Origin: Ottowia sp. oral taxon 894
GTDB taxonomy: Bacteria; Pseudomonadota; Gammaproteobacteria; Burkholderiales; Burkholderiaceae_C
Length of the DNA stretch: 64,000 bases
Direction of reading: 5' to 3'
Assembly: GCF_001262075.1 (NCBI RefSeq)
Contig: NZ_CP012073.1
Coordinates: 496,001 to 560,000, forward strand
Shown: piece by piece, positions 292 through 61,273 of the stretch
Position numbering within the stretch: the first letter of the stretch is position 1
Layout of the letters: the number at the start of each line of letters is the position of its first letter
Made by a program: the position numbers and the translations under genes
Notes under the pieces: model-generated
Database searches by the model: none
Seen by the model: only the letters and a program-made list of their open reading frames with translations
Told to the model about the DNA's origin: nothing

Positions 292-375
292 AAAACAGAA
301 GCAGATTCAAGGGGCCAAAAATGCCATCCCGCGCAGATTCCACTAGGACATCATGCTATTGATTTAGAAGCAAAT
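292..375 (+). repeat. Interspersed repeat family A, copy 1
   Basis: Left end AGCAGATTCAAGGGG, then AAAATGCC, core TTCCACTAGGACATCATGCT, right end GAAGCAAAT. It lies between the convergent DUF167 gene and the first lipoprotein gene. The rest of 161-584 is GC-rich and holds nothing else I can identify. Confidence 0.85.
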
Positions 376-584
376 CAACGCGCTTGTCACGGCTGGCCCG
401 CCCGCTTTTGCGCCGCTCTTGTCCCTTCACTGCCCGCGCCCTGCCCCGCTTTGCCCGTCGGTCAAAACCAAACGGCAACGCTGATTCCGCCCAAGCGCGG
501 CCTCTGGCACAGATGGCCTTGCGGCCCCTCCAGCCGCTTGCGCCGGAGCGGGCGGTTGGAGGAGCAGGCGCGCACCCCGGCGAA

Positions 585-1892
585 TCAGCGGAAATCGCGG
601 GCGATCAAAACGCCTTGCTCCAGCACGATGTAGAGATTGCCGTCCACGCCGTATTTCAGGTGCTGCACGGGCGGCAGACGGAATTTTTCCGGATGCTCCA
701 GAAAATCCTGCGGCGTGGCAGGAGCCTGCTCACCCGTCAATTGAGTGGCCACGCCCTGGCTGGAGACGCGATACAGAGTGCTGGGGCCGCCTGTCACCGT
801 GTGGGTCGCCAGCACAATGCCATCGCCAACCACCGTAAAGGCATCCACTGTTCGCAGTCTGGGAGAAAGCTCGCCCACTTCATTCGGCCTCAGTCTGAAA
901 TCAATTTTCGAACCATCCGAAAGCCGGTGCCATACATAACTTGAGCCACTGACTATTTCCTCCAGCGCATGAATATGGCCCTGGCGGTCGGCATCCAGCG
1001 CCCGGATATTTTTCCTGTAGCCGTCCAGCGTTTTGACTTCGCCGTTGCTGCTGATGGTGCGAATGCGCGTGTCATCGCCGCCGTCAATCACGTAAAGCAG
1101 GCCGGAAGCATCCGCTTCCAAATCATGCGGCGCCTGAAACTGCGCCATTTTGCCGCGCCCATCCACAAAGGAATCGGGCCTCTTGCCCGGCATGCCTGCC
1201 AGCAGGTTGTTTTCGCCCGCTGCATTTTCTTCATATTTGAAAATGCCCGGAACGAAATAATTCCATGCACCGGCCTTGTCATACCAGTCTGATATTTCGC
1301 TATTTGGCCCATAGTTATAGATGATTCGTGTGGCCGCATAGCCTGCCACGTAAAACGCGCCGCTTTTTTCATCGCGATGGAAACCGCCGGGATACCTTGC
1401 CATGGCGCGCTGCCGGGCTGGTGAATCCGGGTTATACAAAGAAAGCGCCGTTTCCACCTTTCCCTTGCTCAGTTTCCTGATTTTCGGCGCCACCTGCCGC
1501 GCTTCCTGATCGGGCGTCATGGCGGCTGGCACAGGCGTGGAGAAATAGCGCCTCTCTGGGCAGGCGCCGCCTGTTTCCGTCAGGTAAATCGCGTCCTTGT
1601 AAACAACAACGCGCTCCAGATAGGAAAACCGCGCTTCGCTGGCCGGGCCGTCTGTGGACTGGCAATGCTTCAAATCAGCCTGCGCCACGCCCGCCAGCAG
1701 CTCGAATTTGAATTGGGCATTTGGCTGTGGCGTAGGCGTGGGTGTCGGAGTAGGCGTAGGAGTAGGCGTAGGAGTTGGCGTCGGCGTGGGTGTTTCAGGC
1801 CCCGAATCGCTGCCGCCGCAGCCCGCCGCCAGGCAGGCGGCCAGCACAGCCGCCATCAGGGCGCTGACAGAATGCAATGTTTTAGTAGCCAT
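585..1892 (-). CDS. Lipoprotein with Pro-Thr linker and beta-propeller-like domain, paralog 1
   Basis: 435 residues. The N-terminus has a lipoprotein signal (hydrophobic stretch ending LAAGCGG, lipobox Cys about residue 25), so an envelope-anchored location is likely. It is followed by a linker of about 12 Pro-Thr units and a folded domain with NHL/SGL-like blades (APHDLEADASGLLYVIDGG, VQHLKYGVDGNLYIV). ATG at 1892 is preferred because GGAGG lies 9 nt upstream; the in-frame ATG 18 nt earlier overlaps that GGAGG and has no ribosome site of its own. The gene lies head-to-tail 84 bp downstream of a close paralog. Function is unknown; blades of this type usually bind ligands or proteins. The PT linker is encoded by imperfect 6-bp repeats and could change length in frame. 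Confidence 0.8.
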   Translation of the reverse strand: MATKTLHSVSALMAAVLAACLAAGCGGSDSGPETPTPTPTPTPTPTPTPTPTPTPQPNAQFKFELLAGVAQADLKHCQSTDGPASEARFSYLERVVVYKDAIYLTETGGACPERRYFSTPVPAAMTPDQEARQVAPKIRKLSKGKVETALSLYNPDSPARQRAMARYPGGFHRDEKSGAFYVAGYAATRIIYNYGPNSEISDWYDKAGAWNYFVPGIFKYEENAAGENNLLAGMPGKRPDSFVDGRGKMAQFQAPHDLEADASGLLYVIDGGDDTRIRTISSNGEVKTLDGYRKNIRALDADRQGHIHALEEIVSGSSYVWHRLSDGSKIDFRLRPNEVGELSPRLRTVDAFTVVGDGIVLATHTVTGGPSTLYRVSSQGVATQLTGEQAPATPQDFLEHPEKFRLPPVQHLKYGVDGNLYIVLEQGVLIARDFR

Positions 1893-1976
1893 AAATTTCA
1901 ACCTCCACAAAAATATGAAAAAACAAATGCCCGGAATTCAAGGCGTATTGCACGCAAAGAATGCCGGGCTGCTGGA

Positions 1977-3293
1977 TCAGCGGAAATCGCGGGCGATCAA
2001 AACGCCCTGTTCCAGCACGATGTAGAGATTGCCGTCCACGCCGTATTTCAGGTGCTGTACGGGCGGCAAAGCAAACTGGTCAGGGTGTTTGACAAAATCG
2101 TCCAGCGAGGCTGGCGTGCGGGTTCCCGTCAATTTTTTGATCACCCCCTGGCTGGATACGCGATACAAAACGCTGGCGCCGCGCTCAACCCATCGATCCG
2201 CCAGCACAATCTCATTGTCAAGCACCGTAAAGGCGATTACCTTTCGCGGCCTGGGAGTGAACTCGGCTCTCTCATCTGGCCTTAAATCGATATCGGTTTT
2301 CGAGCCATCCGAAAGCCGGTGCCATGCAAATGATTTGGAGCTTGTTTCCGCCAGCGCATGAATATGGCCCTGGCGGTCGGCATCCAGCGCCCGGATATAC
2401 CACTGCCGGTAGCCATCCAGCGTTTTGACTTCGCCGCTGCTGTTGATGGTGCGAATGTGCGTGTAATCGCCGCCGTCAATCACGTAAAGCAGGCCGGAAG
2501 CATCAACTTCCAGATCATGCGGCGCCTGAAACTGCGCCATTTTGCCGCGCCCATCCACAAAGCCGCGATCATCCAAAAGGAACTCGGGCCTTTTGCCCGG
2601 CATGCCTGCCAGCAAGTTGTTTTCGCCCGCCGCATTTCCTTCATATTTGAAAATGCCCGGAACGAAATAATTCCATGCACCGGCCCTGTCATACCAGTCC
2701 ATCCTTTCTTTGCCCATCATGTGGTTGTATTTGAATCTCGCGGCGGCATAGCCCGCCACGTAGAATGCGCCGCTTTTCTCGTCACGGTAAAAACCGCCGG
2801 GAAACCTTGCCATGGCGCCCTGCCGCTCCAATACTTCCGGGCTGAAAAGCGAGAGCGCTGTTTCCACTTTTCCACCGCTCAGTTTCCTGATTTTTGGCGG
2901 CATTTTCTGCGCCTGCTGCGCAGGGGGCGTGGAAAAATCATCTTTCAGGCAGCCATTGCCCGTTTCGACCAGATAAATCGCATCCTTGTAAACAACGATG
3001 CGCTCCAGATAGGAAAACCGCGCTTCGCTGGCCAGGCCGTCTGTGGACTGGCAATGATTCAAATCAGCCATGGCCGTGCCTGTCAGCAGCTCGAATTTGA
3101 GCTGGGCATTTGGCTGTGGCGTGGGCGTCGGAGTTGGTGTCGGCGCAGGACTCGGAGTTGGCGTAGGAGTTGGTGTGGGGGTTGGCGTGGGTGTTTCAGG
3201 CCCTGAATCGCTGCCGCCGCAGCCCGCCGCCAGGCAGGCGGCCAGCACAGCCGCCATCAGGGCGCTGCCGGAATGCCATGTTTTTGCAGTCAT
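1977..3293 (-). CDS. Lipoprotein with Pro-Thr linker and beta-propeller-like domain, paralog 2
   Basis: 438 residues, upstream tandem paralog of the gene at 585-1892. The signal and lipobox (LAAGCGG), the first linker residues and the last residues (VQHLKYGVDGNLYIVLEQG onward) are nearly identical, while the middle diverges and has an extra segment about residues 230-240. The linker here contains a Ser-Pro-Ala-Pro interruption. ATG at 3293 is chosen with GGAGG 9 nt upstream, the same spacing as in the paralog; TTG at 3296 is an alternative. The short gap to the paralog and the lack of a terminator suggest one transcript. No catalytic motif is visible. Confidence 0.8.
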   Translation of the reverse strand: MTAKTWHSGSALMAAVLAACLAAGCGGSDSGPETPTPTPTPTPTPTPSPAPTPTPTPTPQPNAQLKFELLTGTAMADLNHCQSTDGLASEARFSYLERIVVYKDAIYLVETGNGCLKDDFSTPPAQQAQKMPPKIRKLSGGKVETALSLFSPEVLERQGAMARFPGGFYRDEKSGAFYVAGYAAARFKYNHMMGKERMDWYDRAGAWNYFVPGIFKYEGNAAGENNLLAGMPGKRPEFLLDDRGFVDGRGKMAQFQAPHDLEVDASGLLYVIDGGDYTHIRTINSSGEVKTLDGYRQWYIRALDADRQGHIHALAETSSKSFAWHRLSDGSKTDIDLRPDERAEFTPRPRKVIAFTVLDNEIVLADRWVERGASVLYRVSSQGVIKKLTGTRTPASLDDFVKHPDQFALPPVQHLKYGVDGNLYIVLEQGVLIARDFR

Positions 3294-3499
3294 CAACTTT
3301 CACCTCCGAATCAGAGTAAAAAAAACCAAAAACCGGGACGCCAAATTGGCCGTTTCAGGCATGGAGCAAAGTCATTGCCGCTTGCAACATCTCGTTTCTA
3401 ACATGCGCACGCGATTCTGCGACGGCATTATTGATATGCAAAGGCTTGTTCCCGGAGGCTTCATTCATATTGACAAATATTAAATTCGCCGTCTTTGAC

Positions 3500-3513
3500 T
3501 TGACCCAAGTCAA
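3500..3513. promoter_or_regulatory. FNR/ANR-type box, variant TTGAC-N4-GTCAA, upstream of ubiU
   Basis: Perfect inverted repeat TTGACCCAAGTCAA. Its centre (3506.5) lies about 28-32 bp before a -10-like TTCAAT at 3534-3539, which fits a class II activator site near -41.5. FNR control of ubiUV is known in other proteobacteria; its use here is inferred. Confidence 0.6.
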
Positions 3514-3542
3514 AATAAAGTCAAAACCGCAGCTTCAATGCT

Positions 3543-3556
3543 TTGATTGAAATCAA
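3543..3556. promoter_or_regulatory. FNR/ANR box, perfect TTGAT-N4-ATCAA, upstream of ubiU
   Basis: The sequence TTGATTGAAATCAA matches the canonical FNR/ANR consensus exactly. It is 43 bp downstream of the variant box (centre to centre) and 55 bp before the ubiU start. If transcription starts near 3547 because of the upstream site, this second site would overlap the start and could limit expression; it could instead serve a promoter starting near 3591. Confidence 0.7.
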
Positions 3557-3611
3557 GAAATGGGTATTGCTCCGCCCATAAGGTATGCCCTCATTTCAGC
3601 CTTGATGGAGG

Positions 3612-4709: not shown

Positions 4710-4725
4710 AGCGAAAGGAAACGGC

Positions 4726-5196: not shown

Positions 5197-5219
5197 TTTC
5201 GCGGCCTTGTTCCGGGCCA

Positions 5220-5307
5220 TTTTTCGCTCCTCGATCAATCGCACGATCTCCCCGCCAATTGGGCGGGGATGCCGTTTTTTGATGCCCTGAATTTGCTCTT
5301 TTTTTGC
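5220..5307 (-). repeat. Interspersed repeat family A, copy 2 (degenerate)
   Basis: Read on the minus strand it keeps GAGCAAATTCAGGGC at one end and GGAGCGAAAA at the other, but the CTAG core is replaced by a hairpin (CCCCGCC, loop AATTG, GGCGGGG at about 5250-5268). It fills the gap between the VOC gene and ubiV. Confidence 0.6.
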
Positions 5308-5395
5308 TGTTTCCGGATGCGCCGCCTGTCCGCTTGTCCATCAAGCCGCGCCGCGCCCCGCAGGAATTTTCCGCAACCCTCCCCACGAAAAAACC

Positions 5396-6289: not shown

Positions 6290-6370
6290 AGCGCGGCAAG
6301 CCTGCGGCAGGTGATGATGCAAAGGCTGGCGAATCCCGCCCTTGAATTCCGGCTCGCACTTCGCTCCTTC

Positions 6371-6460
6371 ATTTCGCTCCTTCATTCATAGCAATACGTC
6401 CTAGTGCAGATTGCGCAAACGCCCTTTTTCACGGCCTGAATTTGCTCCTTCTTTTGATGC
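6371..6460 (-). repeat. Interspersed repeat family A, copy 3
   Basis: Minus-strand copy with GGAGCAAATTCAGGCC, GTTTGCGCA, CACTAGGACGTATTGCTATG and GGAGCGAAAT. An extra TTCGCTCC at 6360-6367 repeats the terminal word. It lies between ubiV and the first SDR gene. Confidence 0.88.
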
Positions 6461-6557: not shown

Positions 6558-7346
6558 ATGACCGCCACACCGCCCTGCCCTGCCGCTCCGCCGGCCGCTT
6601 CCATCGCCCTGGTCACCGGCGCCACGGCCGGGTTCGGCCAGGCCATCAGCCGCGCACTGCTGCAAGCGGGCTGGCGCGTCATTGGCACGGGCCGCCGCGC
6701 AGACAGGCTTGAAGCCTTGCGGGCGCAGTGGCCCGAAGCCTTTTTGCCCCTGGCGTTTGACGTGGCCGGCCGCGCCGCCGCCCAGGGCGCCCTGGCCAGC
6801 CTGCCCGCCGCCTGGCAAGACGTGGACCTGCTCGTGAACAACGCGGGCCTGGCGCTGGGCCTGGAGCGCGCCGACCAGGCCAGCCTGGACGACTGGGACC
6901 GCATGATTGACACCAACATCCGGGGCCTGGCCACCCTCACCCGCCTGCTGCTGCCGCAAATGGTGCGGCGCAACCGGGGCTACGTCATCAACATCGGCTC
7001 CATCGCGGGCGACTGGCCCTATCCGGGCGGCAACGTCTATGGGGCCACCAAGGCGTTTGTCAAACAGTTCAGCCAGAACCTGCGCGCCGATCTGGCGGGC
7101 ACGGCCATCCGCGTCAGCAACGTGGAGCCGGGCCTGTGCGGCGGCACCGAGTTTTCCAATGTGCGCTTCAAGGGCGACGATGAACGCGCCACCAGCGTGT
7201 ATGCCGGCGTGCAGGCCATCAGCCCCGAAGACATCGCCCGCATCGTGCTCTGGCTGGTGCAGCAGCCCCCGCATGTGAACGTGAACCGCATTGAAGTCAT
7301 GCCCGTGGCGCAAAGCTTCGCGCCGCTTTCCGTGGCGCGCGGCTAA
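6558..7346 (+). CDS. Short-chain dehydrogenase/reductase (YdfG-like), copy 1
   Basis: 262 residues, classical SDR. Cofactor loop TGATAGFG, NNAG motif (LLVNNAGLALG), catalytic Ser in NIGSIAGDWPY and the Tyr/Lys pair in VYGATKAFVKQF are all present, so the enzyme should be active. The family includes NADP-dependent 3-hydroxy acid dehydrogenases (YdfG); the substrate is not known. The sequence before its ATG (AGCC) has no good ribosome site. A second copy, about 98% identical at protein level, follows at a distance of 855 bp. It lies inside the anaerobic ubiquinone cluster and may share its regulation. Confidence 0.9.
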   Translation: MTATPPCPAAPPAASIALVTGATAGFGQAISRALLQAGWRVIGTGRRADRLEALRAQWPEAFLPLAFDVAGRAAAQGALASLPAAWQDVDLLVNNAGLALGLERADQASLDDWDRMIDTNIRGLATLTRLLLPQMVRRNRGYVINIGSIAGDWPYPGGNVYGATKAFVKQFSQNLRADLAGTAIRVSNVEPGLCGGTEFSNVRFKGDDERATSVYAGVQAISPEDIARIVLWLVQQPPHVNVNRIEVMPVAQSFAPLSVARG

Positions 7347-8276
7347 GCCCTATCCCATTTCTTCATCCCTTCACTTTCCAAGGAAACCGCCATGCAACAG
7401 GCCATCTCCGCTTCCGCCGCCACCCCGCCCTGCCCTGCCGCCCCGCCGACCGCTTCCATCGCCCTGGTCACCGGCGCCACGGCCGGGTTCGGCCAGGCCA
7501 TCAGCCGCGCACTGCTGCAAGCGGGCTGGCGCGTCATTGGCACGGGCCGCCGCGCAGACAGGCTTGCAGCCTTGCGGGCGCAGTGGCCCGAAGCCTTTTT
7601 GCCCCTGGCGTTTGACGTGGCCGACCGCGCCGCCGCCCAGGGCGCCCTGGCCAGCCTGCCCGCCACCTGGCAAGACGTGGACCTGCTCGTGAACAACGCG
7701 GGCCTGGCGCTGGGCCTGGAGCGCGCCGACCAGGCCAGCCTGGACGACTGGGACCGCATGATTGACACCAACATCCGGGGCCTGGCCACCCTCACCCGCC
7801 TGCTGCTGCCGCAAATGGTGCGGCGCAACCGGGGCTACGTCATCAACATCGGTTCCATCGCGGGCGACTGGCCCTATCCGGGCGGCAACGTCTATGGGGC
7901 CACCAAGGCGTTTGTCAAACAGTTCAGCCAGAACCTGCGCGCCGATCTGGCGGGCACGGCCATCCGCGTCAGCAACGTGGAGCCGGGCCTGTGCGGCGGC
8001 ACCGAGTTTTCCAATGTGCGCTTCAAGGGCGACGATGAACGCGCCGCCAGCGTGTATGCGGGCGTGCAGGCCATCAGCCCCGAAGACATCGCCCGCATCG
8101 TGCTCTGGCTGGTGCAGCAGCCCCCGCATGTGAACGTGAACCGCATTGAAGTCATGCCCGTGGCGCAAAGCTTCGCGCCGCTTTCCGTGGCGCGCGGCTA
8201 AGCCCTATCCCATTTCTTTCCATCCCTTCACTTTCCAAGGAAACCGCCATGCAACAGGCCATCTCCGCTTCCGCCG
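6567..8276 (+). repeat. Tandem duplication, 855-bp unit covering SDR gene, spacer and start of ubiT
   Basis: Unit 1 is about 6567-7421 and unit 2 about 7422-8276. Stop codons of the two SDRs are exactly 855 bp apart. The spacer CTAAGCCCTATCCCATTTCT and the first ~11 codons of ubiT occur after both SDRs. Sequence at the breakpoints is similar in all three places (GCCACxCCGCC), consistent with a microhomology junction. A 2-bp indel separates the spacers. Confidence 0.92.
7392..8201 (+). CDS. Short-chain dehydrogenase/reductase (YdfG-like), copy 2, with ubiT-derived N-terminus
   Basis: 269 residues. From residue 11 onward it matches copy 1 except for a handful of changes (for example E/A, G/D, A/T and T/A substitutions) and keeps TGATAGFG, NNAG and YGATK. 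Its first ten residues (MQQAISASAA) are not SDR sequence: they are the first ten residues of ubiT, with the same upstream ribosome site CCAAGGAAACCGCC. The tandem duplication therefore gave this copy the ubiT translation start. The very low divergence shows that the duplication is recent or kept uniform by gene conversion. Same unknown substrate as copy 1. Confidence 0.9.
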   Translation: MQQAISASAATPPCPAAPPTASIALVTGATAGFGQAISRALLQAGWRVIGTGRRADRLAALRAQWPEAFLPLAFDVADRAAAQGALASLPATWQDVDLLVNNAGLALGLERADQASLDDWDRMIDTNIRGLATLTRLLLPQMVRRNRGYVINIGSIAGDWPYPGGNVYGATKAFVKQFSQNLRADLAGTAIRVSNVEPGLCGGTEFSNVRFKGDDERAASVYAGVQAISPEDIARIVLWLVQQPPHVNVNRIEVMPVAQSFAPLSVARG

Positions 8277-9917: not shown

Positions 9918-9988
9918 GCGCCTGTGCGCCGCCCGGCCCCCAAAAGAACGGTTCGGGCAGGCCGGGCGCAGGCCCAGCGGAAGCGGTT

Positions 9989-10082
9989 ATTTTTCGCTCC
10001 CGAATCCATAGCGTTATGTCCTAGTGGAACGGGCGCGAAAGCCTTTTTGACCCCCCTTTGGATTCGCTCCTGTTTCTGATGC
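9989..10082 (-). repeat. Interspersed repeat family A, copy 4
   Basis: Minus-strand copy with GGAGCGAATCCAAAGGGG, TTCCACTAGGACATAACGCT and GGAGCGAAAA. It lies just downstream of ubiX in the convergent gap 9918-10590, facing copy 5. Confidence 0.88.
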
Positions 10083-10292: not shown

Positions 10293-10401
10293 GCGCAAAG
10301 CGAAGGGCCGCCCTGCGCCGATCAGCGCAAGCCGTCTTTCCTCTGCCCTTTCTCCACCGCCCGCCTTGCGCGCGGCAGCCTGGCGAAAAGCATCCGGCCA
10401 T

Positions 10402-10489
10402 ATCAAAAAGAGGAGCGAATACCGGCGGGCAAAAAGGCCGTTTGCGCACGTTCCGCCAGGACCTCATGCTATGGATCAAGGAGCGGATT
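10402..10489 (+). repeat. Interspersed repeat family A, copy 5
   Basis: Plus-strand copy: GGAGCGAATACCGG, GTTTGCGCACG, TTCCGCCAGGACCTCATGCT, ATGGATCAAGGAGCGGATT. The core CTAG is changed to CCAG. It lies downstream of the GTPase gene, which ends at 10591. Confidence 0.85.
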
Positions 10490-10590
10490 TCCGCGCGTCA
10501 TGAAAGCGCTATCGGCTGGCTTGGGGCTGGCTTGAAGCTGATCGGGGCCGCTTAGGGCGGCGGGAAGGTTGGGCTGGGGCCGAAGTGGCG

Positions 10591-12298: not shown

Positions 12299-12439
12299 TC
12301 TGGATCGCCAGGGGAATCAGTGCCCTGCTTCAGCGCCCTGCTCATGCCGGCCCGTGAGCGCGGCAAGAGCAGGATGGAGACGGGCGGATGCCGACGGCAT
12401 GCGCAGCGGCGCGGATGAAGCGCGCCATTTCACCCCTTG

Positions 12440-12530
12440 ATTTCGCTCCTTGATCCATAGCATGAGGTCCTAGTGGAAATTGCGCGAGAGGGTGTTTCAC
12501 CCCCTCTGAATTCGCTCCTCTTTTTGATGC
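12440..12530 (-). repeat. Interspersed repeat family A, copy 6
   Basis: Minus-strand copy: GGAGCGAATTCAGAGGGGG, TTTCCACTAGGACCTCATGC and GGATCAAGGAGCGAAAT. It lies between the acnB stop and its likely terminator, so it should be in the 3' untranslated part of the acnB transcript. Confidence 0.9.
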
Positions 12531-16855: not shown

Positions 16856-17050
16856 GCGGCTCTTTCGGCTATTGAAAACAAGATGGAAACCGGCTTCTGG
16901 CGCGAACGGGAAAGGTTGCAAAACGGTTGAACCGGCGGCACTGACATTCAGGCATGCCAGTGCGGGGTGTTGGTTGCCAGAGCCTGCTTTCGATTTGTCC
17001 GTGGGTGCAAAAGTGCAAACAGGCGAGTCTTGTTTTGTGCGGTTTACTCT

Positions 17051-17135
17051 GTTTTTGAGAGCGAATTCCAGCCCCTGAAAATGCCTCTGTCGCACGCTTT
17101 CATTGACTTTGATGCCATCAAATCAATAGCGAAAT
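17051..17135 (+). repeat. Interspersed repeat family A, copy 7 (degenerate)
   Basis: Recognisable parts: GAGAGCGAATTCCAG, CCTGAAAATGCC, CGCACGCTTTC, and the right end ATAGCGAAAT. The CTAG core is lost. It fills the 345-bp gap between mdh and the citE-like gene. Confidence 0.45.
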
Positions 17136-17154
17136 GGCGGATGACTTCAGGGGC

Positions 17155-24672: not shown

Positions 24673-24738
24673 AAAGCGCCCAGCCGCAGATTCCAGGGCG
24701 TACAGGCCAAGACCCGTATGGGTTGATCTGTCCGGCAA

Positions 24739-24828
24739 CATCAAAAACAGGAGCAAATTGAAGGGGTCAAAATGCCGTCTCGCGCACTTTCCACTAGGAC
24801 ATATCGCTATGAATAAAGTAGCTAAATG
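24739..24828 (+). repeat. Interspersed repeat family A, copy 8
   Basis: ATCAAAAACAGGAGCAAATT, AAGGGGTCAAAATGCCGTCT, CGCGCACTTTCCACTAGGAC and a right end GTAGCTAAAT. It lies in the 647-bp gap between gltA and the first M16 peptidase gene, which otherwise contains only the terminator and a family B copy. Confidence 0.9.
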
Positions 24829-24974
24829 AGCCTGCCGCCCATTGGCTGTTCATCCGTCCTTCGCCTTGCCCGCGCCTTGCCCTTTCAGCGCCCACGGCCA
24901 GGCCGTGACCGGAGCCTTGGGCATTGCCACGAATGGGCTTTCTGTTTCTTTTCTCTCTTTCCGCTTTTTCTTCT

Positions 24975-27213: not shown

Positions 27214-27256
27214 CAACCGTTTTTCGCAACCGCCCACGCCCTGAAATCCACCGTTC

Positions 27257-27340
27257 ATTTTGCTATCGGTTCAATAGTGAGCAGTCCTACGAAACATTGC
27301 GGCAGGGGCGTTTTTGAAGCCCTTGATTCGCTCTTGAAAA
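27257..27340 (-). repeat. Interspersed repeat family A, copy 9 (degenerate)
   Basis: Minus-strand remnants: AAGAGCGAATCAAGGGC at the left end, AAAAACGCC, a changed core TAGGACTGCTCACTATTG, and ATAGCAAAAT. It lies between the methyltransferase and the second M16 gene. Confidence 0.5.
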
Positions 27341-27456
27341 CGGAGCAAAACACGCCAGAGCAGCGCTGGCGCACAAACAGACTCCGGGCATTGAACAGGC
27401 TCGCAAGCCAGGCCCAAAACCCCATCCTGAAATCTTCTGCATCCGGGAAACACACC

Positions 27457-31091: not shown

Positions 31092-31105
31092 TGTGTGATT
31101 ACACA
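31092..31105. promoter_or_regulatory. Near-palindrome TGTGTGATTACACA
   Basis: Inverted repeat with one mismatch directly before repeat copy 10 in the 780-bp gap between the quinone reductase and the TonB receptor. Possible regulator site, but only one instance is seen. The rest of 30700-31091 shows nothing recognisable. Confidence 0.25.
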
Positions 31106-31189
31106 AAAAGAGGAGCAAATTTAAACCCATGAAAACGGCTGCTGCGCCCATTCCACTAGGACATCACGCTATGGATCCAGGAGCAAATC
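31106..31189 (+). repeat. Interspersed repeat family A, copy 10
   Basis: AAAGAGGAGCAAATTTAAAC, GAAAACGGCTGCTGCGCCC, TTCCACTAGGACATCACGCT and CCAGGAGCAAAT. It lies about 290 bp before the TonB receptor gene. Confidence 0.88.
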
Positions 31190-31479
31190 CAGCTTGCTTC
31201 CGCGCTCCGTCATGCCCACGCAAACCGTCAGCTGCCCGGCCTGGCTCGCGTGGGCGCCTGCTTCGCTGGAAAAGGCTGGGGCAGGGCAGCAAAGCCGCCG
31301 GGGTGCGGCCAGCCCTGCCAGTCCGTCACATTTGACGACACATGCAACAAGCTTTGCCGCCCCGCAGATAATCCGCCGTCCGGCGCGTGAGACTTTCTTG
31401 CACGCGCTTTTTCAACCCGGCGGCTGTAATGCTTTTCAGAAATGTTCGCATCTGAAGCCGTTTTTTCCTCCTTCATGCC

Positions 31480-33678: not shown

Positions 33679-33771
33679 ACCTGGCCATGAGCCTGGCCGC
33701 AAGGCCCAGCCGGGCCGGCCTTTTCAGAAGCCACTCCTTGATGCTGACTGATGCTGACGCGGCCCGCCAAA

Positions 33772-33860
33772 AATGCTCCTTGAAAAAGAGCATTACGTCC
33801 TAGTGGAATAAGCGCAGACGCCTTTCAAAGCGCCCTCAAATTCGCTCCTGTTTTTGATGT
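33772..33860 (-). repeat. Interspersed repeat family A, copy 11
   Basis: Minus-strand copy: ATCAAAAACAGGAGCGAATT, TTCCACTAGGACGTAATGCT and AAGGAGCATT. It lies in the convergent gap between the TonB receptor and rnhB. Confidence 0.87.
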
Positions 33861-38952: not shown

Positions 38953-38984
38953 GTGGTCAGCGGCGGCAGGCCGTGGCCCGGCAG

Positions 38985-39073
38985 CATCAGAAAGAGGAGC
39001 AAATAAAGCGGCATAAAAACGGCTTCTGCGCAGTTTCCGCTAGGACATCATGCTATGAATCAAGGAGCGAAAT
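38985..39073 (+). repeat. Interspersed repeat family A, copy 12
   Basis: AGAGGAGCAAATAAAGCGG, AAAACGGCTTCTGCGCA, TTTCCGCTAGGACATCATGC and ATCAAGGAGCGAAAT. Inserted between tgpA and the DUF58 gene, which are usually adjacent. Confidence 0.9.
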
Positions 39074-39101
39074 AACGGGGTGTTCGCCTGCGGTTTTTGG
39101 G

Positions 39102-43007: not shown

Positions 43008-43280
43008 GGTCTCTCTCCTTTCCCAAAACAGTGTTTATGCCGGGCGGGCAGGCGGCCAAATGCCGCAAACCCGCGCGGTTTTCTCATTTGAATACCGTGA
43101 AAATCACGGCAAAACGGATTTTCGCGCTTTTCGCGCCCACGGCCAGATGGCAAACAGGCTTTCAGGCCCCGGCCGGCTTAACCCTGTTTATTTCCGCGCG
43201 CGGTTTTGCGCGGCCATTTTTGGCTCGCGCCGCAAACTCAAAGCGGCTTCAGGGCGCGGGCAAGGCTGAATGCGCGGCTT

Positions 43281-43372
43281 TGTTTCGCTCCTGCATTCAT
43301 AGCAAGATGTCCAGGTGGAGATTGCGCAAAGCGGCATTTTCACCCCATTGAATCCGCTCTTGTTTTTGATGT
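43281..43372 (-). repeat. Interspersed repeat family A, copy 13
   Basis: Minus-strand copy: CAAGAGCGGATTCAATGGGG, TGAAAATGCCGCTTTGCGCA, a core changed to CCACCTGGACATCTTGCTAT and GGAGCGAAAC. It lies between the DUF1840 and dedA-like genes. Confidence 0.85.
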
Positions 43373-46327: not shown

Positions 46328-46361
46328 GCGCTTGTTCCAGGGGCAGGCTGTGAGCGCGGCC

Positions 46362-46453
46362 TTTATTCGCTCCTTCTTCCATAGCATGATGTCCTAGTGG
46401 AATCTGCGCAAACGCCATTTTCAGACCCTTTAATTTGCTCCTGTTTCTGATGC
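46362..46453 (-). repeat. Interspersed repeat family A, copy 14
   Basis: Minus-strand copy: CAGAAACAGGAGCAAATTAA, TTTGCGCAGA, TTCCACTAGGACATCATGCT, GGAAGAAGGAGCGAAT. It lies inside the putative operon between the GT-C and GT2 genes. Confidence 0.9.
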
Positions 46454-51443: not shown

Positions 51444-51467
51444 AGCGGCAGACTTCGCGCCCAGCCG

Positions 51468-51555
51468 CATCAGAAACAAGAGCGGATTTAAGGGTCTGAA
51501 ATGCCGCCCTGCGCCCGTTTCACTAGGACGTCTTGCTATGGATCAAGGAGCAAAT
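51468..51555 (+). repeat. Interspersed repeat family A, copy 15
   Basis: ATCAGAAACAAGAGCGGATT, AAGGGTCTGAAATGCCGCCC, TTTCACTAGGACGTCTTGCT and GATCAAGGAGCAAAT. First of two copies in the same orientation in the mutL-smpB gap. Confidence 0.88.
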
Positions 51556-51796
51556 CCAAGCTCTCCTTTCCTTCTCTTCTACGCCGTGCGGGCCATTCGC
51601 ATTCCCCCTGCCTGCGCGGGCGCGGGAATCCTCAGAAACGGCGGGATCGACGAACAGGCTGGCCCGTTCGCGCCTTGCCGCCGCCCTGCCCTCTTGCGCA
51701 GAGAAAACGGCGCGAAGCGAAAGCCGGGCGGCCCTGGCTGGCTCCGCCGCCATGCCTTCGCGCGCCTTGCGGATCCGCCATGAGAAGGCAGAGCGG

Positions 51797-51886
51797 TATC
51801 AAAATCAGGAGCGGATTCAAGGGCTGAAAATGCCGCCCGGCGCAGATTCCACTAAGACCATGCGCTATGAAAACAGAAGCGAAATA
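51797..51886 (+). repeat. Interspersed repeat family A, copy 16
   Basis: ATCAAAATCAGGAGCGGATT, AAGGGCTGAAAATGCCGCCC, TTCCACTAAGACCATGCGCT and GAAGCGAAAT. It lies 329 bp from copy 15; the sequence between the two has no convincing gene. Confidence 0.87.
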
Positions 51887-51994
51887 ACGCCCTTGCGCCT
51901 TGTCTTCTGCTCATGCCTTGCGCATTCCAAATGCCTGCATTCCGGCTCGCATCCCCTTGCGGCCCGCTTGCAGGCGCGGGCGGCGGGCGGGCCG

Positions 51995-53445: not shown

Positions 53446-53550
53446 GAGCCTGTTGGCAATCCGGCGTCCGCCGCGCCGCTTATCCCCGCACGATTTCGCA
53501 CGATTTAGCCCGGCTCGTTCCACTTGCTCCATTTGTCCCCATCGCCCAGG

Positions 53551-53606
53551 CCCAAGCCTGTGGAAAAGCCGTGGGCAAACCGGTATGGCGCGCGCAAGTG
53601 CCTGCG
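53551..53606 (+). repeat. ~55-bp repeat family C, unit 1
   Basis: CCTGTGGAAAAGCCGTGGGC, AAACCGGTATGGCGCGCGC, AAGTGCCTG. Contains paired DnaA-box-like words TGTGGAAAA and CGTGGGCAA. Confidence 0.75.
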
Positions 53607-53684
53607 CGGCAAGGCAGCGCATGATTTGCCTGAAAAATGGGCGGGGCGCACCAGCCAGGCGCGGCGGTTTTGCACACGCGCCGG

Positions 53685-53735
53685 GCGCAAAGCTGTGGGC
53701 AAGCCGTGGACAAGCCGGTACGGCGCGCGCAAGTG
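53685..53735 (+). repeat. ~55-bp repeat family C, unit 2
   Basis: GCGCAAAGCTGTGGGCAAGC, CGTGGACAAGCCGGTACGG, CGCGCGCAAGTGACTG. Words TGTGGGCAA and CGTGGACAA. Confidence 0.75.
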
Positions 53736-53845
53736 ACTGAAAGCCAAGGATTCGCCGCCGCTGCCTTCTTTTTTGGCAGCGCCGCGCTCGCGGCCCCTGG
53801 CGCGAGAACCTGTTCAGAGCAAACCGGCTTTTTCACACCCTGCGG

Positions 53846-53900
53846 GCGCAAAGCTGTGGAAAAGCCGGGGGCAAACGTGTATGCCGCGCGCAAGTGCCTG
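53846..53900 (+). repeat. ~55-bp repeat family C, unit 3
   Basis: GCGCAAAGCTGTGGAAAAGC, CGGGGGCAAACGTGTATGC, CGCGCGCAAGTGCCTG. The three units lie in the 838-bp gene-free stretch 53446-54283, which otherwise shows nothing firm. Confidence 0.75.
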
Positions 53901-54283
53901 ACGGACAAGGAAATGGCCGCCGTGCCTCGTTTTTCAGCACCTTTTGCCACTGGCGGCCCGCCGCCATCCGCCTATCAAGCGGAGAAGAAGGACGAGGCGG
54001 CAAACCTTGCGCAAACATTATTAAAAATGCCGCTCTGCGCCTATCCGAAAGTGGCAGCGTATAAAAAAAGAGACGGCTATCGCTGCCAATAGTCATCTCG
54101 GGTTATTTCGAATTCTTCCCAAACCCGCCGCACCAGCGAATGCTGTCTGCGGTGGCACCTCAAGCAATCCAACGGGATTTCCGCAAGGAAAAAGCTTTTT
54201 TCTTGCGGTGATGGCTAGGTTCATGGAACTTCTTGAAGACTGTTGGAAATAAGGGAAGGCTAGCTTTATCGTGTGCGGGCTGC

Positions 54284-55007: not shown

Positions 55008-55066
55008 GCAGAGCAGGAGCAAATTCAGGGGGTATGAAATGCCGTTTTGCGCACTTTCCACTAGGG
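55008..55066 (+). repeat. Interspersed repeat family A, copy 17 (truncated at CTAG)
   Basis: CAGGAGCAAATTCAGGGGG, GAAATGCCGTTTTGCGCAC, TTTCCACTAG, then unrelated sequence GGATTGTTGAAAATCACC. The right third of the repeat is absent. Confidence 0.85.
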
Positions 55067-55843: not shown

Positions 55844-55897
55844 GCCGCAAGCCGCGCCCGAGGCCGCGCTTTTCGCTCCCACGATGCGAGCAGGCTC

Positions 55898-58807
55898 TCA
55901 GGCCAGTTTGGCAGCCACCCAGCCTTGCACGCTTTGCAGAGCCTGGGGCAGCGCGGCGGCGTTCGTGCCGCCGGCCATGGCCATGTCGGGCTTGCCGCCG
56001 CCTTTGCCGCCTACTTGCTGGGCGACGAAGTTCACGAGTTCACCCGCCTTGATGCGGCCCACGGTGTCGGGCGTGACGCCTGCGGCCAGCTGCACTTTGC
56101 CTTCGGATGTGGCGGCCAGCACGATGGCGGCGGTTTTGAGCTTGTCTTTGAGCTTGTCCATCGTCTCGCGCAGGGTTTGGGCGTCTGCGCCATCAAGGCG
56201 GGCGGCGAGCACCTGCACGCCATGAACGCTGACGGCCTGGCTGGCCAGTTCGCCGCCCTGGGCGCTGGCCAGGCGCCCTTTGAGCTGGGCCACTTCTTTT
56301 TCCAGCGTTTTGATGTGATCGAGCGTCTGGCGCAGGCGGCCTTGCAGGTCGGCAGCGGGGGCGTGCAGGGCGGCGGCGGCCGATTGCACGGCGTTTTCGG
56401 TGGCTTGCGCCCAGTTCAGGGCGTTCAGGCCCGTGATGGCTTCCACGCGGCGGATGCCGGCGGCCACGCCGCTTTCCATGACGATTTTGAACAGGCCAAT
56501 GTCGCCGGTGCGGGCCACGTGGGTGCCGCCGCACAGCTCGCGGCTGGCGCCGATGTCGAGCACGCGCACGGTGTCGCCGTATTTCTCGCCAAAAAGCATC
56601 ATGGCGCCGGTTTCGCGGGCGCTGTCGATGTCCATCACGCACGCTTGCGTGGCGGTGTTGGCCAGGATTTCGGCGTTCACGCGGCGTTCGATTTCGGCGA
56701 TTTCTTCGGGCGTGACGGGCGCGCCGTGCGTGAAGTCAAAGCGGGTTTTGTCGGCATCGACGAGCGAGCCTTTTTGCTGCACATGGCTGCCGAGCACTTC
56801 GCGCAGGGCCTTGTGCATGAGGTGGGTGACGCTGTGGTTGCGCATGGTGGCCTGGCGGCGCTGCGTGTCCACTTGCGCCTGCACGGCGTCGCCCACCTTG
56901 AGCGCGCCTTGCGTGAGCGCGCCGTGGTGGCCGTGCACGCCAGCCTTGATTTTTTGCGTGTCGGCCACTTCAAACACCACGCCGGGGGCGGTGAGCAGGC
57001 CGGCATCGCCCACCTGGCCGCCGCTTTCGGCGTAAAAGGGCGTGGCGTCCAGCACGACCACGCCAGCCTGGCCCGCCTTGAGTTCGCCCACGCTTTGCCC
57101 GTCGGCATACAGGGCGGTGACGCGGCAGGCGGCATGGGCCATTTCGTCGTAGCCGGTGAACAGGCCCGCTGGGCCTTCATAGTCGAGCAGCTTGTCCATC
57201 TTGAACTTGCCGGCGGCGCGTGCGCGGGCGCGCTGGGCCTGCATTTCGCGCTCAAAGCCGTCAGCGTCCAGCTCGATGCCCAGCTCGCGGGCCATGTCAG
57301 CCGTCAGGTCATACGGGAAGCCGTAGGTGTCGTAGAGCTTGAAGATGTGCTCGCCGGGGATGATGAGCTTGCTGCCCGCCAGATTGGCTTGCAGGTAATC
57401 CTCCAGCGCCAGGCCGTAGGGCTTGCCTTCTTCGGGCGGCTGGCGGGTGAGCACGTCTTCCAGATCGAAGGAGATGACTTCGTTCAGGCGGCCGGGCTGC
57501 CTGGGACGCAACACCACCTGCTTTTTGTGCCCGTCAGGGCGCACGGCGGCGGAGAACTCCACGCCTTCGGCGGTTTTCAACATCAGCGGCTGGCCTTGTC
57601 CTTCCAGCGGCAGCAAGCTGGCGAGCTTGAGGAATTTCATGCCCGAGAGCACGTCATCAAACAGCGCCAGGCCCGTTTCCAGCGTTTGCCCAAAGCGCGT
57701 TTCTTCGTCGCGCAGGGTTTGCATGATGCGGGTTTGCTGCTCTTTGATTTGGGGATAGGCGCTGCCCATTTCGCGCGCCAGATCAGGCACGAGCTTGTAG
57801 AAAAACGGCTGCTTTTGCCCCAGCTTGTAGCCGTGGCGGATGGCGCGGCGGATGATGCGGCGCAGCACATAACCGCGCCCTTCGTTGCCGGGAATGACGC
57901 CGTCGGCAATGAGAAAAGAGCAGGCGCGGATGTGGTCGGCAATCACCTTCAGGCTGGGCACGTCCATGCTGAAGGGCACGCCCACTTCGCGCGCGGCGGC
58001 GCGGATGAGCGCCTGAAACAAATCAATCTCGTAATTGCTGTGCACGCCTTGCAAGATGGCGGCCAGGCGCTCCAGCCCCATGCCGGTATCCACGCAGGGC
58101 GCGGGCAGGCGGGTGACGCTGCCGTCTTCATGCATTTCAAACTGCATGAACACGTGGTTCCAGATTTCAATGAAGCGGTCGCCGTCTTCATCGGGGCTGC
58201 CGGGAGGGCCGCCGGGCACGTCAGGGCCGTGGTCGTAGAAGATTTCGCTGCTGGGGCCGCAAGGGCCGGTGTCGGCCATCATCCAGAAGTTGTCGCTCTT
58301 GTATTTGCCGCCCTTGTTGTCGCCGATGCGAATCACGCGCTCGGACGGCAGGCCGATGACTTTCGTCCAGATGTCATACGCCTCGTCGTCTTCGTGATAG
58401 ACGGTGGCCAGCAGGCGCTCGGGCGGCAGCTTGTAAACCTGCGTGAGCAGCTCCCAGCCCCATTGCAGGCTTTCTTTCTTGAAATAGTCGCCAAAGCTCC
58501 AGTTGCCCAGCATCTCGAAAAAAGTGTGGTGGCGCGCGGTGTAGCCCACGTTTTCCAGATCGTTGTGCTTGCCGCCCGCGCGCAGGCAGGCTTGCACGCT
58601 GGTGGCGCGGTTGTAGGGGCGCTTGTCGGCGCCCAGAAACACATCCTTGAACTGCACCATGCCGCTGTTGGTGAACATGAGCGTGGGGTCATTGGCGGGC
58701 ACCAGCGGCGAAGAAGGCACGATGGTGTGCCCGCGCGCGGCGAAAAAGTCGAGAAAAGTCTGGCGGATTTGCGCCACGGACATGTGGGGGACTGAATGGG
58801 TCGTCAT
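55898..58807 (-). CDS. alaS: Alanyl-tRNA synthetase with large internal insertion
   Basis: 969 residues; the family norm is about 875. Class II core: [18 protein letters not shown], the motif 2/3 regions including [31 protein letters not shown] and [15 protein letters not shown]. Editing domain: [19 protein letters not shown] and [16 protein letters not shown]-Ala domain ends the protein. Between LALFDDVL (residue ~387) and [20 protein letters not shown] (~489) there are about 100 residues where relatives have about 20. ATG at 58807 is used; ATG at 58783 (MSVAQIRQ) aligns with the E. coli start. Confidence 0.95.
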
Positions 58808-59253
58808 GGTTGTTGTGAAGGAAAAGAATCAGGGCGCAGCAAATCCACTTGCACGCCCCTGAACTGGAGGAAATCGGCGTCAAACGTGCCCACGGCGGCT
58901 TCGTGCTCGATGGCCAGCGCGGCCAGGTGGGCGTCATTGGTCAGGTTGCCGCCCGCGCCGCATTGCAGCAAGAGCTTGAAAAACAAATCGGCATGGCGGG
59001 CGCCGGGCTGCGCCAGCACGGCATGCGGATGCGCCAGCCACTCGTCCACCACGCCTGTGGCCTCGGCCACCGACAAAGGCGCAGGCATCACGCGCGGATG
59101 CGTGGCAATGCGCACAAAGCCAATCAGCGCATTCCAGGCAAAGGCCACGGCCTGGCTGGCAAACGCCTGCTCCAGCCAGACCGTGGCCGCCGCATGCTGG
59201 GGGCTGCTGGCATTGACGCTGTAAACCAGCACATTGGTATCAGGCAGCTTCAC
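58804..59253 (-). CDS. PIN-domain toxin, VapC-like
   Basis: 149 residues. PIN fold with [19 protein letters not shown] (first Asp), [16 protein letters not shown] (middle acidic region is weak) and [17 protein letters not shown] plus [11 protein letters not shown] for the later Asp residues. Probable endoribonuclease toxin. It starts 9 bp after the antitoxin stop and its end overlaps the alaS start by 4 bp. Not every VapC homolog is toxic. Confidence 0.87.
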
Positions 59254-59262
59254 GGCGCGGTC

Positions 59263-59676
59263 TCAATCTGCGGCGGCTTTGCTTGCGGCATCTGCGCTGG
59301 CGGCGGGCTGCTGCGCCGCATGCCTGGAGCGGCCAGAACGGCGCGGCGGCTGTTTTTGCTGCGCTTGCCACTCGGCATTGAGCCGGGCGTCCAGCGCCAA
59401 AAATGCCTGCACGTCCAGCTCGCCTGCCAGCTTGCCTGGCTGCCCGGCGTCTGGCTGCTGTGGCAGTCCCATATGGAACGTGCGCTGCACAAAACGCGGC
59501 ACGGGCCGCGCGGGCGCTTCAGCCGTCATGGGCACGATGCGGGCCACGGGCTTGTTGTGCCGGGTGATGATGACTTCTTCGCCCCGCTCGGCGCGGGCGA
59601 CGTATTCGGACAAACGGGTCTTGGCCTCAAACAAGCCCACAGTGGCCGCGCTCGCGGCCGGCATGGCGGCAGTCAT
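59263..59676 (-). CDS. Phd/YefM-family antitoxin, VapB partner, with long C-terminal tail
   Basis: 137 residues from ATG at 59676, with AGGAG 7 nt upstream. N-terminal Phd domain: VGLFEAKTRLSEYVARAERG, EEVIITRHNKPVARIVPM. Residues 60-105 should bind the toxin (LDVQAFLALDARLNAEWQ). The last 30 residues are Gln/Arg then Ala/Ser-rich, longer than typical members of about 80-100. First gene of the pair, as usual for autoregulated VapBC systems. Confidence 0.87.
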   Translation of the reverse strand: MTAAMPAASAATVGLFEAKTRLSEYVARAERGEEVIITRHNKPVARIVPMTAEAPARPVPRFVQRTFHMGLPQQPDAGQPGKLAGELDVQAFLALDARLNAEWQAQQKQPPRRSGRSRHAAQQPAASADAASKAAAD

Positions 59677-59780
59677 GTGGGGTCTCCTTGCGAAAAAACA
59701 GGCCAAGCGCACGGCCTGGCCCAACTGGTTGAATCAGCCAGATTCTAGGCGGCATCGAGACAGTCCGCCGCAAACCAGCG

Positions 59781-59870
59781 CATTAAAAAGAGGAGCGGAT
59801 TCAAGGCGCATTGAAACGGCATTGGCGCACATTCCGCCAAGACACCATGCTATTGATAAAGAAGCGGAAA
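59781..59870 (+). repeat. Interspersed repeat family A, copy 18
   Basis: AAAAAGAGGAGCGGATTCAA, GAAACGGCATTGGCGCACA, a changed core TTCCGCCAAGACACCATGCT and AAGAAGCGGAAA. It lies between the antitoxin promoter region and the queC end. Confidence 0.85.
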
Positions 59871-60000
59871 AAGCCTTTTTCTGCTTTCCTGGTGCCTGAA
59901 CCTTGGGGCAGGCCATCAGTCAAGACACGTCCAGCTTTGCTTTCAGGAGCTAAAGATGGCCCTGGAAGCTGTTCATAGTCCGACTACGAGCCAGGTGCGA

Positions 60001-60741
60001 TCAGCTGCTTGAGCGCGGCTGGCTGTATTTCGCCCAGCCCCGGGCGCGCAGCTCGCAGGCGGGGCAGTGGCCGCAGCCCCAGCCCCAGGGGTGGCGATGG
60101 GTGCGGTCGCCCAGGTAGCAGGTGTGGGTGTGCTCGGTAATCAGACGCACCAGGTCTGCGCCGCCGCCTGCGGGGTCGGCCTGCTGGCCCAAATCGTGTG
60201 CGAGCTGCCAGGTTGCGGCCTTGTCCAGCCACATGAGCGGGGTGTCGATGACGTAGCGGCGGTCCATGCCGAGGGTGAGCGCCACTTGCAGGGCTTTCAT
60301 GGTGTCGTCGCGGCAATCGGGGTAGCCGGAAAAATCGGTTTCGCACACGCCGGTGACGATGACGCTCAGGCCGCGCCGCCAGGCCAGCGCCGCCGCCAGG
60401 GTGAGAAACAGCAAATTGCGGCCAGGCACAAAGGTGTTGAGCATGCCGCCGGCTTGTGTTTCGATGGCGATGTCGCGCGTCATGGCGGTGTCGCTGATCT
60501 GGCCGAGCACGGGCAAATCGAGCACGTGGTCCTCTCCCAGCCGCCCGCTCCAGGCCGCAAAGCGCTGGCGCAGCGCAGCAAGCACGGCCAGCCGCTGCGT
60601 CAGCTCCACGCGATGGCGCTGGCCGTAGTCAAAGCCGATGGTTTCCACGCGCTCGTAGCGCGTGAGGGCGTAGGCCAGGCAGGTGGCGGAGTCCTGCCCG
60701 CCGGAAAACAAAACGAGGGCATTGCGGTGTGCTTCAGACAT
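60001..60741 (-). CDS. queC: 7-cyano-7-deazaguanine synthase QueC
   Basis: 246 residues from ATG at 60741. PP-loop ATPase: [20 protein letters not shown] and [11 protein letters not shown]. Zinc site Cys cluster near the end in [18 protein letters not shown]. Also [17 protein letters not shown]. Converts carboxy-deazaguanine to preQ0 in queuosine synthesis. No other que gene is adjacent, and I see no preQ1 riboswitch upstream. Confidence 0.95.
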
Positions 60742-60898
60742 GGCGGTGAAAGGGACAACAAAGATGAAGGGCGGCCAGATCGCTGGCTTTGGCCATGCTG
60801 GAGGTCTGGCGCTGGCTGGGCTTGCGGCCTCGGGCCTGAAGCGGACACGGCCTTCTTGCCCGCCATGGCCGCGCGGACTGACAGCCCGCCTTAACCGG

Positions 60899-60923
60899 AA
60901 CCTGTTCAGCATCTGGCCGCAAA
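60899..60923 (+). repeat. Short repeat family B
   Basis: AACCTGTTCAGCATCTGGCC in the 583-bp gap between hisA and queC, which contains only this and repeat A copy 19. Confidence 0.5.
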
Positions 60924-61183
60924 GTCTGACCGCCAGAGGCGGCGCATCAGGATGGAGCAGCAAGGTGTAAACGGGCTTGTGCTTCACGCACAGCTCACTT
61001 GCATTCAATTTGCAGCCCGGCGAGGGCTTGCAAGGCCGCAGATCGCCCGAGTTTGCGCTTCTGGCGTCTGCGAACGGGGTGTGAACAGGTTATCTGGAGG
61101 ATCAAGAAGCGGACAACTTGGCCCGCACGGGCGTTTTACCCTTGGCGGCAGGCGGCAGCCAGCTTCTGGCAAGCACCATGAAA

Positions 61184-61273
61184 CAGCAGAAACAGGAGCA
61201 AATTCAGGGGTATCGAAAAGCTGCCCTGCGCTGGTTTCACTAGGACCTCACGCTATGAAAAGCGGAGCTAAAT
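61184..61273 (+). repeat. Interspersed repeat family A, copy 19
   Basis: CAGAAACAGGAGCAAATTCA, GGGGTATCGAAAAGCTGCCC, TTTCACTAGGACCTCACGCT and CGGAGCTAAAT, 52 bp before the hisA stop codon. Confidence 0.9.

What the first reader, a model, noticed from the sequence alone, without database searches (positions are those of the whole stretch)
292..61273. A dense family of ~85-90 bp intergenic repeats with direct (not inverted) terminal repeats
Nineteen copies (292, 5220, 6371, 9989, 10402, 12440, 17051, 24739, 27257, 31106, 33772, 38985, 43281, 46362, 51468, 51797, 55008, 59781, 61184), about one per 3.4 kb, always between genes and on both strands. Architecture: GGAGCRAATTCAGGGG, AAAATGCC, TGCGCA, TTCCACTAGGACATCATGCT, then ATCAAGGAGCGAAAT. 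REP/BIME elements and MITEs usually have inverted ends; here both ends carry the same GGAGCRAAT word. No transposase or RAYT gene is present to explain the spread. Copies vary from near-consensus to heavily decayed, so the family has been active over a long time. I know of no named family with this layout.
Basis: partly seen in the sequence, partly recalled or inferred. Interest (0 to 1): 0.85.

Follow-up and report, generated by a model that had tools for sequence, protein, structure and literature searches.

The report
Gene-end repeat family in Ottowia
A roughly 90-base DNA sequence occurs several hundred times in one Ottowia genome, nearly always just after the ends of genes; it descends from a hairpin repeat shared by related bacteria, and its copies look more like a site kept by selection than a dead, decaying parasite.

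Summary
In detail: all 19 copies are real, intergenic and on both strands. A sample of 864 kb of the 2.93 Mb genome holds 201 copies, implying about 670. The genus is Ottowia. The repeat is a derived composite of a 57-nt two-hairpin intergenic element found in 44 of 120 genomes of the family. The 'direct terminal repeats' are most simply two copies of that element's 3' hairpin module (moderate support), and the inner block is flipped relative to a minor canonical-type subfamily in the same genome. The ~90-bp form matched none of the 28 other Ottowia genomes held. Copies behave like a motif: no near-identical pairs, little subfamily structure, yet 16 of 84 columns at least 97% conserved. They occupy 70% of convergent, 48% of codirectional and 13% of divergent gaps. 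No Y1 transposase candidate exists in the genome. Best reading: a REP/BIME-like element now kept as a sequence-specific gene-end site. The function is inferred; terminator and RNA-structure readings gained little support.

The parts
286..380 (+). type I repeat copy
   Evidence: profile match E 1.6e-19; extent
5217..5310 (-). type I repeat copy; inner block replaced by a perfect hairpin
   Evidence: E 6.8e-12
6367..6460 (-). type I repeat copy
   Evidence: E 1.3e-18
9987..10082 (-). type I repeat copy
   Evidence: E 3.6e-19
10400..10493 (+). type I repeat copy
   Evidence: E 3.7e-20
12436..12530 (-). type I repeat copy, after the acnB end
   Evidence: E 9.3e-21
17046..17139 (+). aberrant copy with a still palindromic 5' module, after the mdh end; several Ottowia have an element at this gene end
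   Evidence: E 2.7e-8
24738..24831 (+). type I repeat copy, after the gltA end
   Evidence: E 4.7e-20
27253..27346 (-). aberrant copy with a still palindromic 5' module
   Evidence: E 3.3e-9
31100..31193 (+). type I repeat copy
   Evidence: E 9.9e-19
33766..33860 (-). type I repeat copy
   Evidence: E 2.5e-16
38984..39077 (+). type I repeat copy
   Evidence: E 3.1e-20
43278..43372 (-). type I repeat copy
   Evidence: E 5.1e-20
46360..46453 (-). type I repeat copy, best match of the window
   Evidence: E 5.4e-22
51467..51560 (+). type I repeat copy, after the mutL end
   Evidence: E 8.1e-20
51796..51889 (+). type I repeat copy
   Evidence: E 3.6e-16
55012..55066 (+). truncated type I copy (profile positions 7-60 only), in the gap after the alaS end
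   Evidence: E 2.1e-11
59780..59874 (+). type I repeat copy
   Evidence: E 2.1e-17
61183..61277 (+). type I repeat copy
   Evidence: E 2.2e-18

Best explanation
The repeat ('type I') is a species-specific composite of a two-hairpin intergenic element that is spread patchily through this family. The ancestor reads roughly TTTCA..AAAnGGCC - hairpin H1 (AGCGC..GCGCT) - hairpin H2 (GCTAT..ATAGC) - AAA. In this lineage H1 decayed to a non-palindromic block that was flipped in the copies that became type I, and a further, 5'-truncated H2 module was joined in front, giving the 'direct terminal repeats' (read from comparison; the order of events is inferred). The form then rose to about 670 copies. 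It now sits at the ends of transcription units as a sequence-specific site for a host factor, most likely acting on duplex DNA, because it is used in both orientations and shows no RNA structure. A REP/BIME-like role, such as topological relief or insulation where transcription ends, is the most likely one. Placement and column constraint are shown; the binding factor and the physiological role are inferred. How the copies spread is unknown.
For: Canonical element in relatives. Inner block matches the reverse complement of the own canonical-type subfamily: mean 16.5, forward 8.9, null 8.8 +/- 2.1, 17 of 22 better reversed. 5' module resembles canonical H2: 13.7, null 9.1 +/- 2.8. Nearest-neighbour median 0.815 against 0.789 with columns permuted, with 16 of 84 columns at 97% or more (189 copies). 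Occupancy 53 of 76 convergent, 112 of 235 codirectional, 10 of 77 divergent gaps; same bias in G010 and G014. Fold z about 0 on both strands (first 100 copies); no complementary covariation. Elements recur at the acnB, mdh and gltA ends in other Ottowia.
Against: No bound factor, transcript or phenotype is known. The gene-end bias alone would also follow from purging of harmful insertions. 5' module support is moderate (5 of 22 above the 99th percentile of the null), and only 9 of 22 canonical-type copies show the expected TTCA/TCAG border. Some column coupling exists: 66 of 1707 distant pairs at z>4 against about 9 expected. Ortholog gap tests were too small.
Confidence: 0.5

Rival explanations
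1. A selfish REP/MITE-like family without host function: copies were spread by a transposase since lost, or by another (perhaps error-prone) copying process, and survive only where they do least harm, at gene ends.
For: Patchy presence across genera (43 of 119) and within Ottowia (19 of 29 genomes with 10 or more R2 matches). Avoidance of divergent gaps fits purging. Many relatives carry Y1_Tnp genes (42 of 60 genomes searched). Element orientation at the mdh and gltA ends differs between species.
Against: No close pairs (maximum identity 0.89 among 189 copies) and almost no shared ancestry beyond column composition, yet 16 columns at 97% or more; uniform decay predicts a column spread of 0.041 against 0.197 seen (105 copies). 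Y1_Tnp presence does not follow the element in Ottowia: 14 of 19 rich, 7 of 10 poor. Only 29.5% of the genome was sampled, so some close pairs may be missed.
Confidence: 0.35
2. A transcription terminator, intrinsic or factor-dependent, usable from both sides.
For: Placement after stop codons, median 56 bp in 122 codirectional cases, and in 53 of 76 convergent gaps. Relatives' H1 followed by a T run looks terminator-like (by eye). Of 22 terminator-like hits inside elements 20 have the element in - orientation.
Against: Type I has no hairpin (fold z about 0). Intrinsic-terminator-like sites are as frequent with as without an element: 25% and 31% codirectional, 36% and 24% convergent. Where one is found it precedes the element in 45 of 73 cases and follows it in 6.
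Confidence: 0.1
3. A member of the published Beta-proteobacterial repeat element (BRE) family.
For: About 90 bp, usually intergenic, reported from Bordetella and from Polaromonas, Delftia, Acidovorax and Rhodoferax (PMC3110155, passages read).
Against: Bordetella BRE averages 69% GC and forms tandem arrays; type I is 47% GC and G010 copies 58%, dispersed singly.
Confidence: 0.05

Closest known systems
REP / BIME / REPIN elements with RAYT transposases (Nunvar 2010 PMC2817692, Bertels and Rainey 2011 PMC3116915; passages read)
   Same: Small, intergenic, hundreds of copies, hairpin ancestor, composite units of modules, gene-end placement (the last recalled for E. coli REPs)
   Different: Type I has lost its hairpins; no Y1 transposase in the genome; copies are never near-identical; ends are direct, not inverted; conserved bases are spread over ~85 bp
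Beta-proteobacterial repeat element, BRE (PMC3110155, passages read)
   Same: ~90 bp intergenic repeat reported from several Comamonadaceae
   Different: 69% GC in Bordetella, tandem arrays, at most 29 copies in a genome; sequence not compared
MITEs
   Same: Small, intergenic, high copy, no coding capacity
   Different: No terminal inverted repeats; no partner transposase found; target duplication not examined

Membership tests
REP/REPIN-RAYT system | RAYT (Y1) transposase gene in the genome | tested here: not met
   PF01797: 0 candidates in the own genome; 14 of 19 element-rich and 7 of 10 element-poor Ottowia have a match
REP/REPIN-RAYT system | Y1 genes of relatives flanked by two inverted copies of the repeat | tested here: inconclusive
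   20 stretches around Y1_Tnp genes: 7 hold no match at E<=0.1; five Ottowia have one a few hundred bp after the domain, oppositely oriented on both sides in G019 and G009 at best; background density is about one per 3 kb
REP/REPIN-RAYT system | Palindrome able to form a hairpin | tested here: not met
   Type I fold z -0.04 and 0.11 (first 100 copies); met in relatives G010 and G021, not G014
REP/REPIN-RAYT system | Many near-identical copies (active replicative unit) | tested here: not met
   Maximum pairwise identity 0.89 among 189 copies from 29.5% of the genome
REP/REPIN-RAYT system | Intergenic, hundreds of copies | tested here: met
   201 copies in 864 kb, 199 noncoding
MITE | Terminal inverted repeats | tested here: not met
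   Both ends carry GGAGC in the same direction
MITE | Target-site duplication at filled sites | not tested
   Too few orthologous gaps with an own copy
BRE | Sequence homology to published BRE | not testable with these tools
   BRE sequences not held; GC and tandem arrangement differ
Rfam RNA family | Covariance-model match | tested here: not met
   0 matches at gathering score in the window; no match at the canonical copies in L099 and L104 at E<=1
Intrinsic terminator | Stable hairpin followed by a U run | tested here: not met
   terminator-like hits inside the element at 22 of 201 gene ends

The most novel reading that the evidence does not exclude
A mobile hairpin repeat was domesticated: after a hairpin flip and a head-to-tail fusion it lost its secondary structure but gained fixed sequence words, and now forms a genome-wide array of about 670 binding sites for an unknown host protein at the ends of transcription units, kept base by base by selection with no Y1 mobilising enzyme left.
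Probability: 0.3. Interest if true: 0.75.

Novelty: new variant of a known kind. Interest (0 to 1): 0.5.

Why it matters
Whether dense intergenic repeats are parasites or working parts is an old question. Here the statistics of one genome bear on it directly: the copies show almost no recent shared ancestry yet keep specific columns, and the hairpins of the relatives' form are gone. If orthologous copies in a sister strain confirm the constraint, the family gives several hundred natural test sites for a gene-end function, and a genus with element-rich and element-poor species for comparison.

Tried and rejected
Element in the loop of a larger hairpin: left-right flank complementarity 12.7 observed, 13.7 with swapped flanks, 104 copies; rejected. 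Replichore bias: none apparent by 500-kb bin, 114 copies. Base-pair covariation within type I: none convincing. Substitution for intrinsic terminators: not seen. Association with Y1_Tnp: none. Copies elsewhere: core pattern 0 in viral contigs and 0 in genome contigs (the own record may be left out); one copy against plasmids by blastn, no match. Short-word function outside elements: GGAGCRAAT 5 times (reversed control 0) and GGAGCRAA 32 times (control 4) in 165 kb of intergenic DNA outside type I copies. This is an excess; I think it reflects canonical-type copies and Shine-Dalgarno sites, but did not test that. Ortholog gap tests with G010/G014 (8 gaps) and G021 (19 gaps, 2 with an own copy) were too small. 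PMC3733652: none of six clade terms searched in it occurs. PMC2817692, PMC3116915 and PMC3110155 were seen as passages only. Rows dropped: truncated copy 55008 left out of A1; 12 of 201 copies with over 10% gaps left out of the nearest-neighbour test; A3 used 30 of 64 G010 matches; A4 used 21 of 22 G021 matches; fold test used the first 100 copies longer than 75 bp. R1 and R2 genome searches score only a capped number of candidates per genome, so their counts are lower bounds. Coding calls come from a simple caller of my own, not an annotation.
Full report
Observation. All lie in gaps between called genes (a simple caller of my own). The core 23-mer with up to 3 mismatches occurs 10 times in the window against 0 in 100 shuffles, and 158 + 160 times in the 2,925,783-bp genome against 0 for the reversed pattern. 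A whole-genome model search scored 150 candidates; all 150 passed, the worst at E 4.5e-19. The window plus 40 stretches of 20 kb (864 kb) hold 201 copies; without the window 182 in 800 kb, or about 670 per genome.

Where it comes from. The genus is Ottowia: contig G003:C1, labelled same genus, has the length of NZ_JACCKX010000001.1, Ottowia beijingensis. The ~90-bp form (type I) has no match at E<=1e-6 in the 28 other Ottowia genomes held. Weak matches in 13 of the relatives, mostly to model positions ~30-90, lead to a 53-57-nt element with the order AAAnGGCC, H1 (AGCGC..GCGCT), H2 (GCTAT..ATAGC), AAA. It gives 64 matches in 200 kb of G010, six of them second-strand matches to the same palindromic site, and 38 in 187 kb of G014. 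A structured model of it (R2) matches 21 of 29 Ottowia genomes at E<=1e-4, 19 of them 10 or more times, own included, and 44 of 120 genomes of the family at E<=1e-3. Of 150 genomes drawn from the order, 5 match at E<=1e-5; only 2 of these lie outside the family, with one match each. Among 80 named loci around gltA, 15 hold a match at E<=0.01, some weak, including Ottowia beijingensis, Paenacidovorax caeni, Acidovorax delafieldii and Comamonas badia (names).

Anatomy. The own genome also holds a minor canonical-type subfamily, 22 copies in the sample. Its inner block, GTCCTAGTGGAATCAGCGC in the clearest copies, grades into the palindromic AGCGCCCGTGGAATGGGCGC. The type I inner block GCGCACTTTCCACTAGGAC resembles its reverse complement, between outer parts that keep their orientation. 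The type I core scores 16.5 on average against the reverse complement of the 22 blocks and 8.9 forward, null 8.8 +/- 2.1; the reverse is better in 17 of 22, and 10 of 22 exceed the 99th percentile of the null. So the H1 block was flipped; a template switch at the quasi-palindrome would do it (inference). The type I 5' module GCATCAAAAACAGGAGCAAAT resembles canonical H2 modules (mean 13.7, null 9.1 +/- 2.8; 5 of 22 above the 99th percentile), and the following TTCARGGG resembles the canonical 5' border, though only 9 of 22 canonical-type copies show TTCA or TCAG there. Window copies 17051 and 27257 still have a palindromic 5' module (by eye).

Structure. Fold z-scores are -0.04 and 0.11 for type I (first 100 copies) and 0.14 and -0.43 for G014, but -1.8 and -1.5 for G010 and -2.0 and -1.9 for G021. 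In G021 compensatory changes exceed shuffles (22 cells, 14.6 +/- 2.9 expected, 4 of 500 shuffles reach it), though two of the five measures do not. In G010 none does. In type I, 66 of 1707 distant column pairs are coupled at z>4 against about 9 expected, but the strongest are not complementary; I read them as a minority inner-block variant.

Motif-like constraint. Among 189 full copies the mean pairwise identity is 0.685 and the nearest-neighbour median 0.815, maximum 0.89; permuting every column independently gives 0.789 and 0.857. The copies are thus close to independent draws from one profile. Yet 16 of 84 columns are at least 97% conserved and 21 are below 60%. In the first 105 copies the column spread was 0.197 against 0.041 under uniform change. 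Of 201 copies 172 score 50 bits or more, with a tail of 28 matches between 15 and 45 bits, so a detection bias is unlikely to make the pattern. A neutrally decaying family of that divergence should not keep such columns, and a recently copied family should show close pairs. Selection on each copy is the simplest reading; an error-prone copying process that still runs is not excluded, and only 29.5% of the genome was sampled.

Placement. 199 of 201 copies are noncoding. Gaps of at least 120 bp are occupied in 53 of 76 convergent, 112 of 235 codirectional and 10 of 77 divergent cases. In codirectional gaps the median distance from the upstream stop codon is 56 bp, and antisense exceeds sense 75 to 47. 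With gaps of at least 90 bp, G010 has 12 of 15, 23 of 57 and 2 of 19, and G014 12 of 18, 14 of 49 and 1 of 24; there 14 of 63 and 4 of 39 elements overlap called genes by more than half. In the conserved block acnB..mdh-gntR-sdhCDAB-gltA an element lies near the acnB end in 5 of 12 genomes in which it can be seen (own, G003, G010, G013, G019; all on the same strand), at the mdh end in 6 of 12 (own, G021, G003, G007, G013, G016; strands differ), and after gltA in 5 of 13 (own, G003, G010, G013, G019; strands differ); several of these matches are weak (E 1e-3 to 8e-3). None lies in the divergent mdh/gntR gap.

Mechanism. No Y1 transposase candidate exists in the own genome, and Y1_Tnp presence does not follow the element in Ottowia: 14 of 19 rich, 7 of 10 poor, one of the latter below the curated cut-off. 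Other transposase and reverse-transcriptase families were not searched. Intrinsic-terminator-like sites are about as common beside elements as without them: 25% and 31% codirectional, 36% and 24% convergent. At 201 gene ends facing one element they lie before it in 45, inside it in 22 (20 with the element in - orientation), after it in 6, and are absent in 128. I therefore favour a site recognised as DNA at the ends of transcription units, REP/BIME-like in role. The factor and the physiological effect are not shown.

Literature. Eight searches found one neighbouring report, BRE in Bordetella and other betaproteobacteria (PMC3110155, passages read). It differs in GC content and tandem arrangement; its sequences could not be compared. 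The library lacks most subscription journals, so that the family is unnamed is likely, not proven.

Noticed in passing
window 6558-8201: Two adjacent genes share a 300-nt stretch at 98% identity (855 bp apart); the first is a short-chain dehydrogenase, so this looks like a recent tandem duplication or gene conversion.
   Followed up: no
window 585-3296: A ~1.39-kb tandem duplication of two diverged paralogues (75-94% in blocks) without a Pfam match for the first; each has a run of GTNGGNGTNGGN-like triplets.
   Followed up: partly
window 53533-53939: Three direct copies of a ~111-nt unit, 66-100% alike, spaced 135 and 161 bp.
   Followed up: no
window 5217-5310: A repeat copy whose inner block is replaced by a perfect 8-bp stem with a 5-nt loop (TCCCCGCC..GGCGGGGA), an apparent swap of a hairpin into the module (by eye).
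   Followed up: no
G013 (Ottowia), whole genome: 20 PF01797 matches, several identical and some split in two, as expected of a recently expanded IS200-like element.
   Followed up: no
L099:7289-7380 (G010): Selenocysteine tRNA by Rfam, E 6.3e-16.
   Followed up: no
own genome sample, flanks of 104 type I copies: For tens of bases the left flank is G-rich and the right flank C-rich relative to the element's strand, as expected if gene ends face it from both sides.
   Followed up: partly
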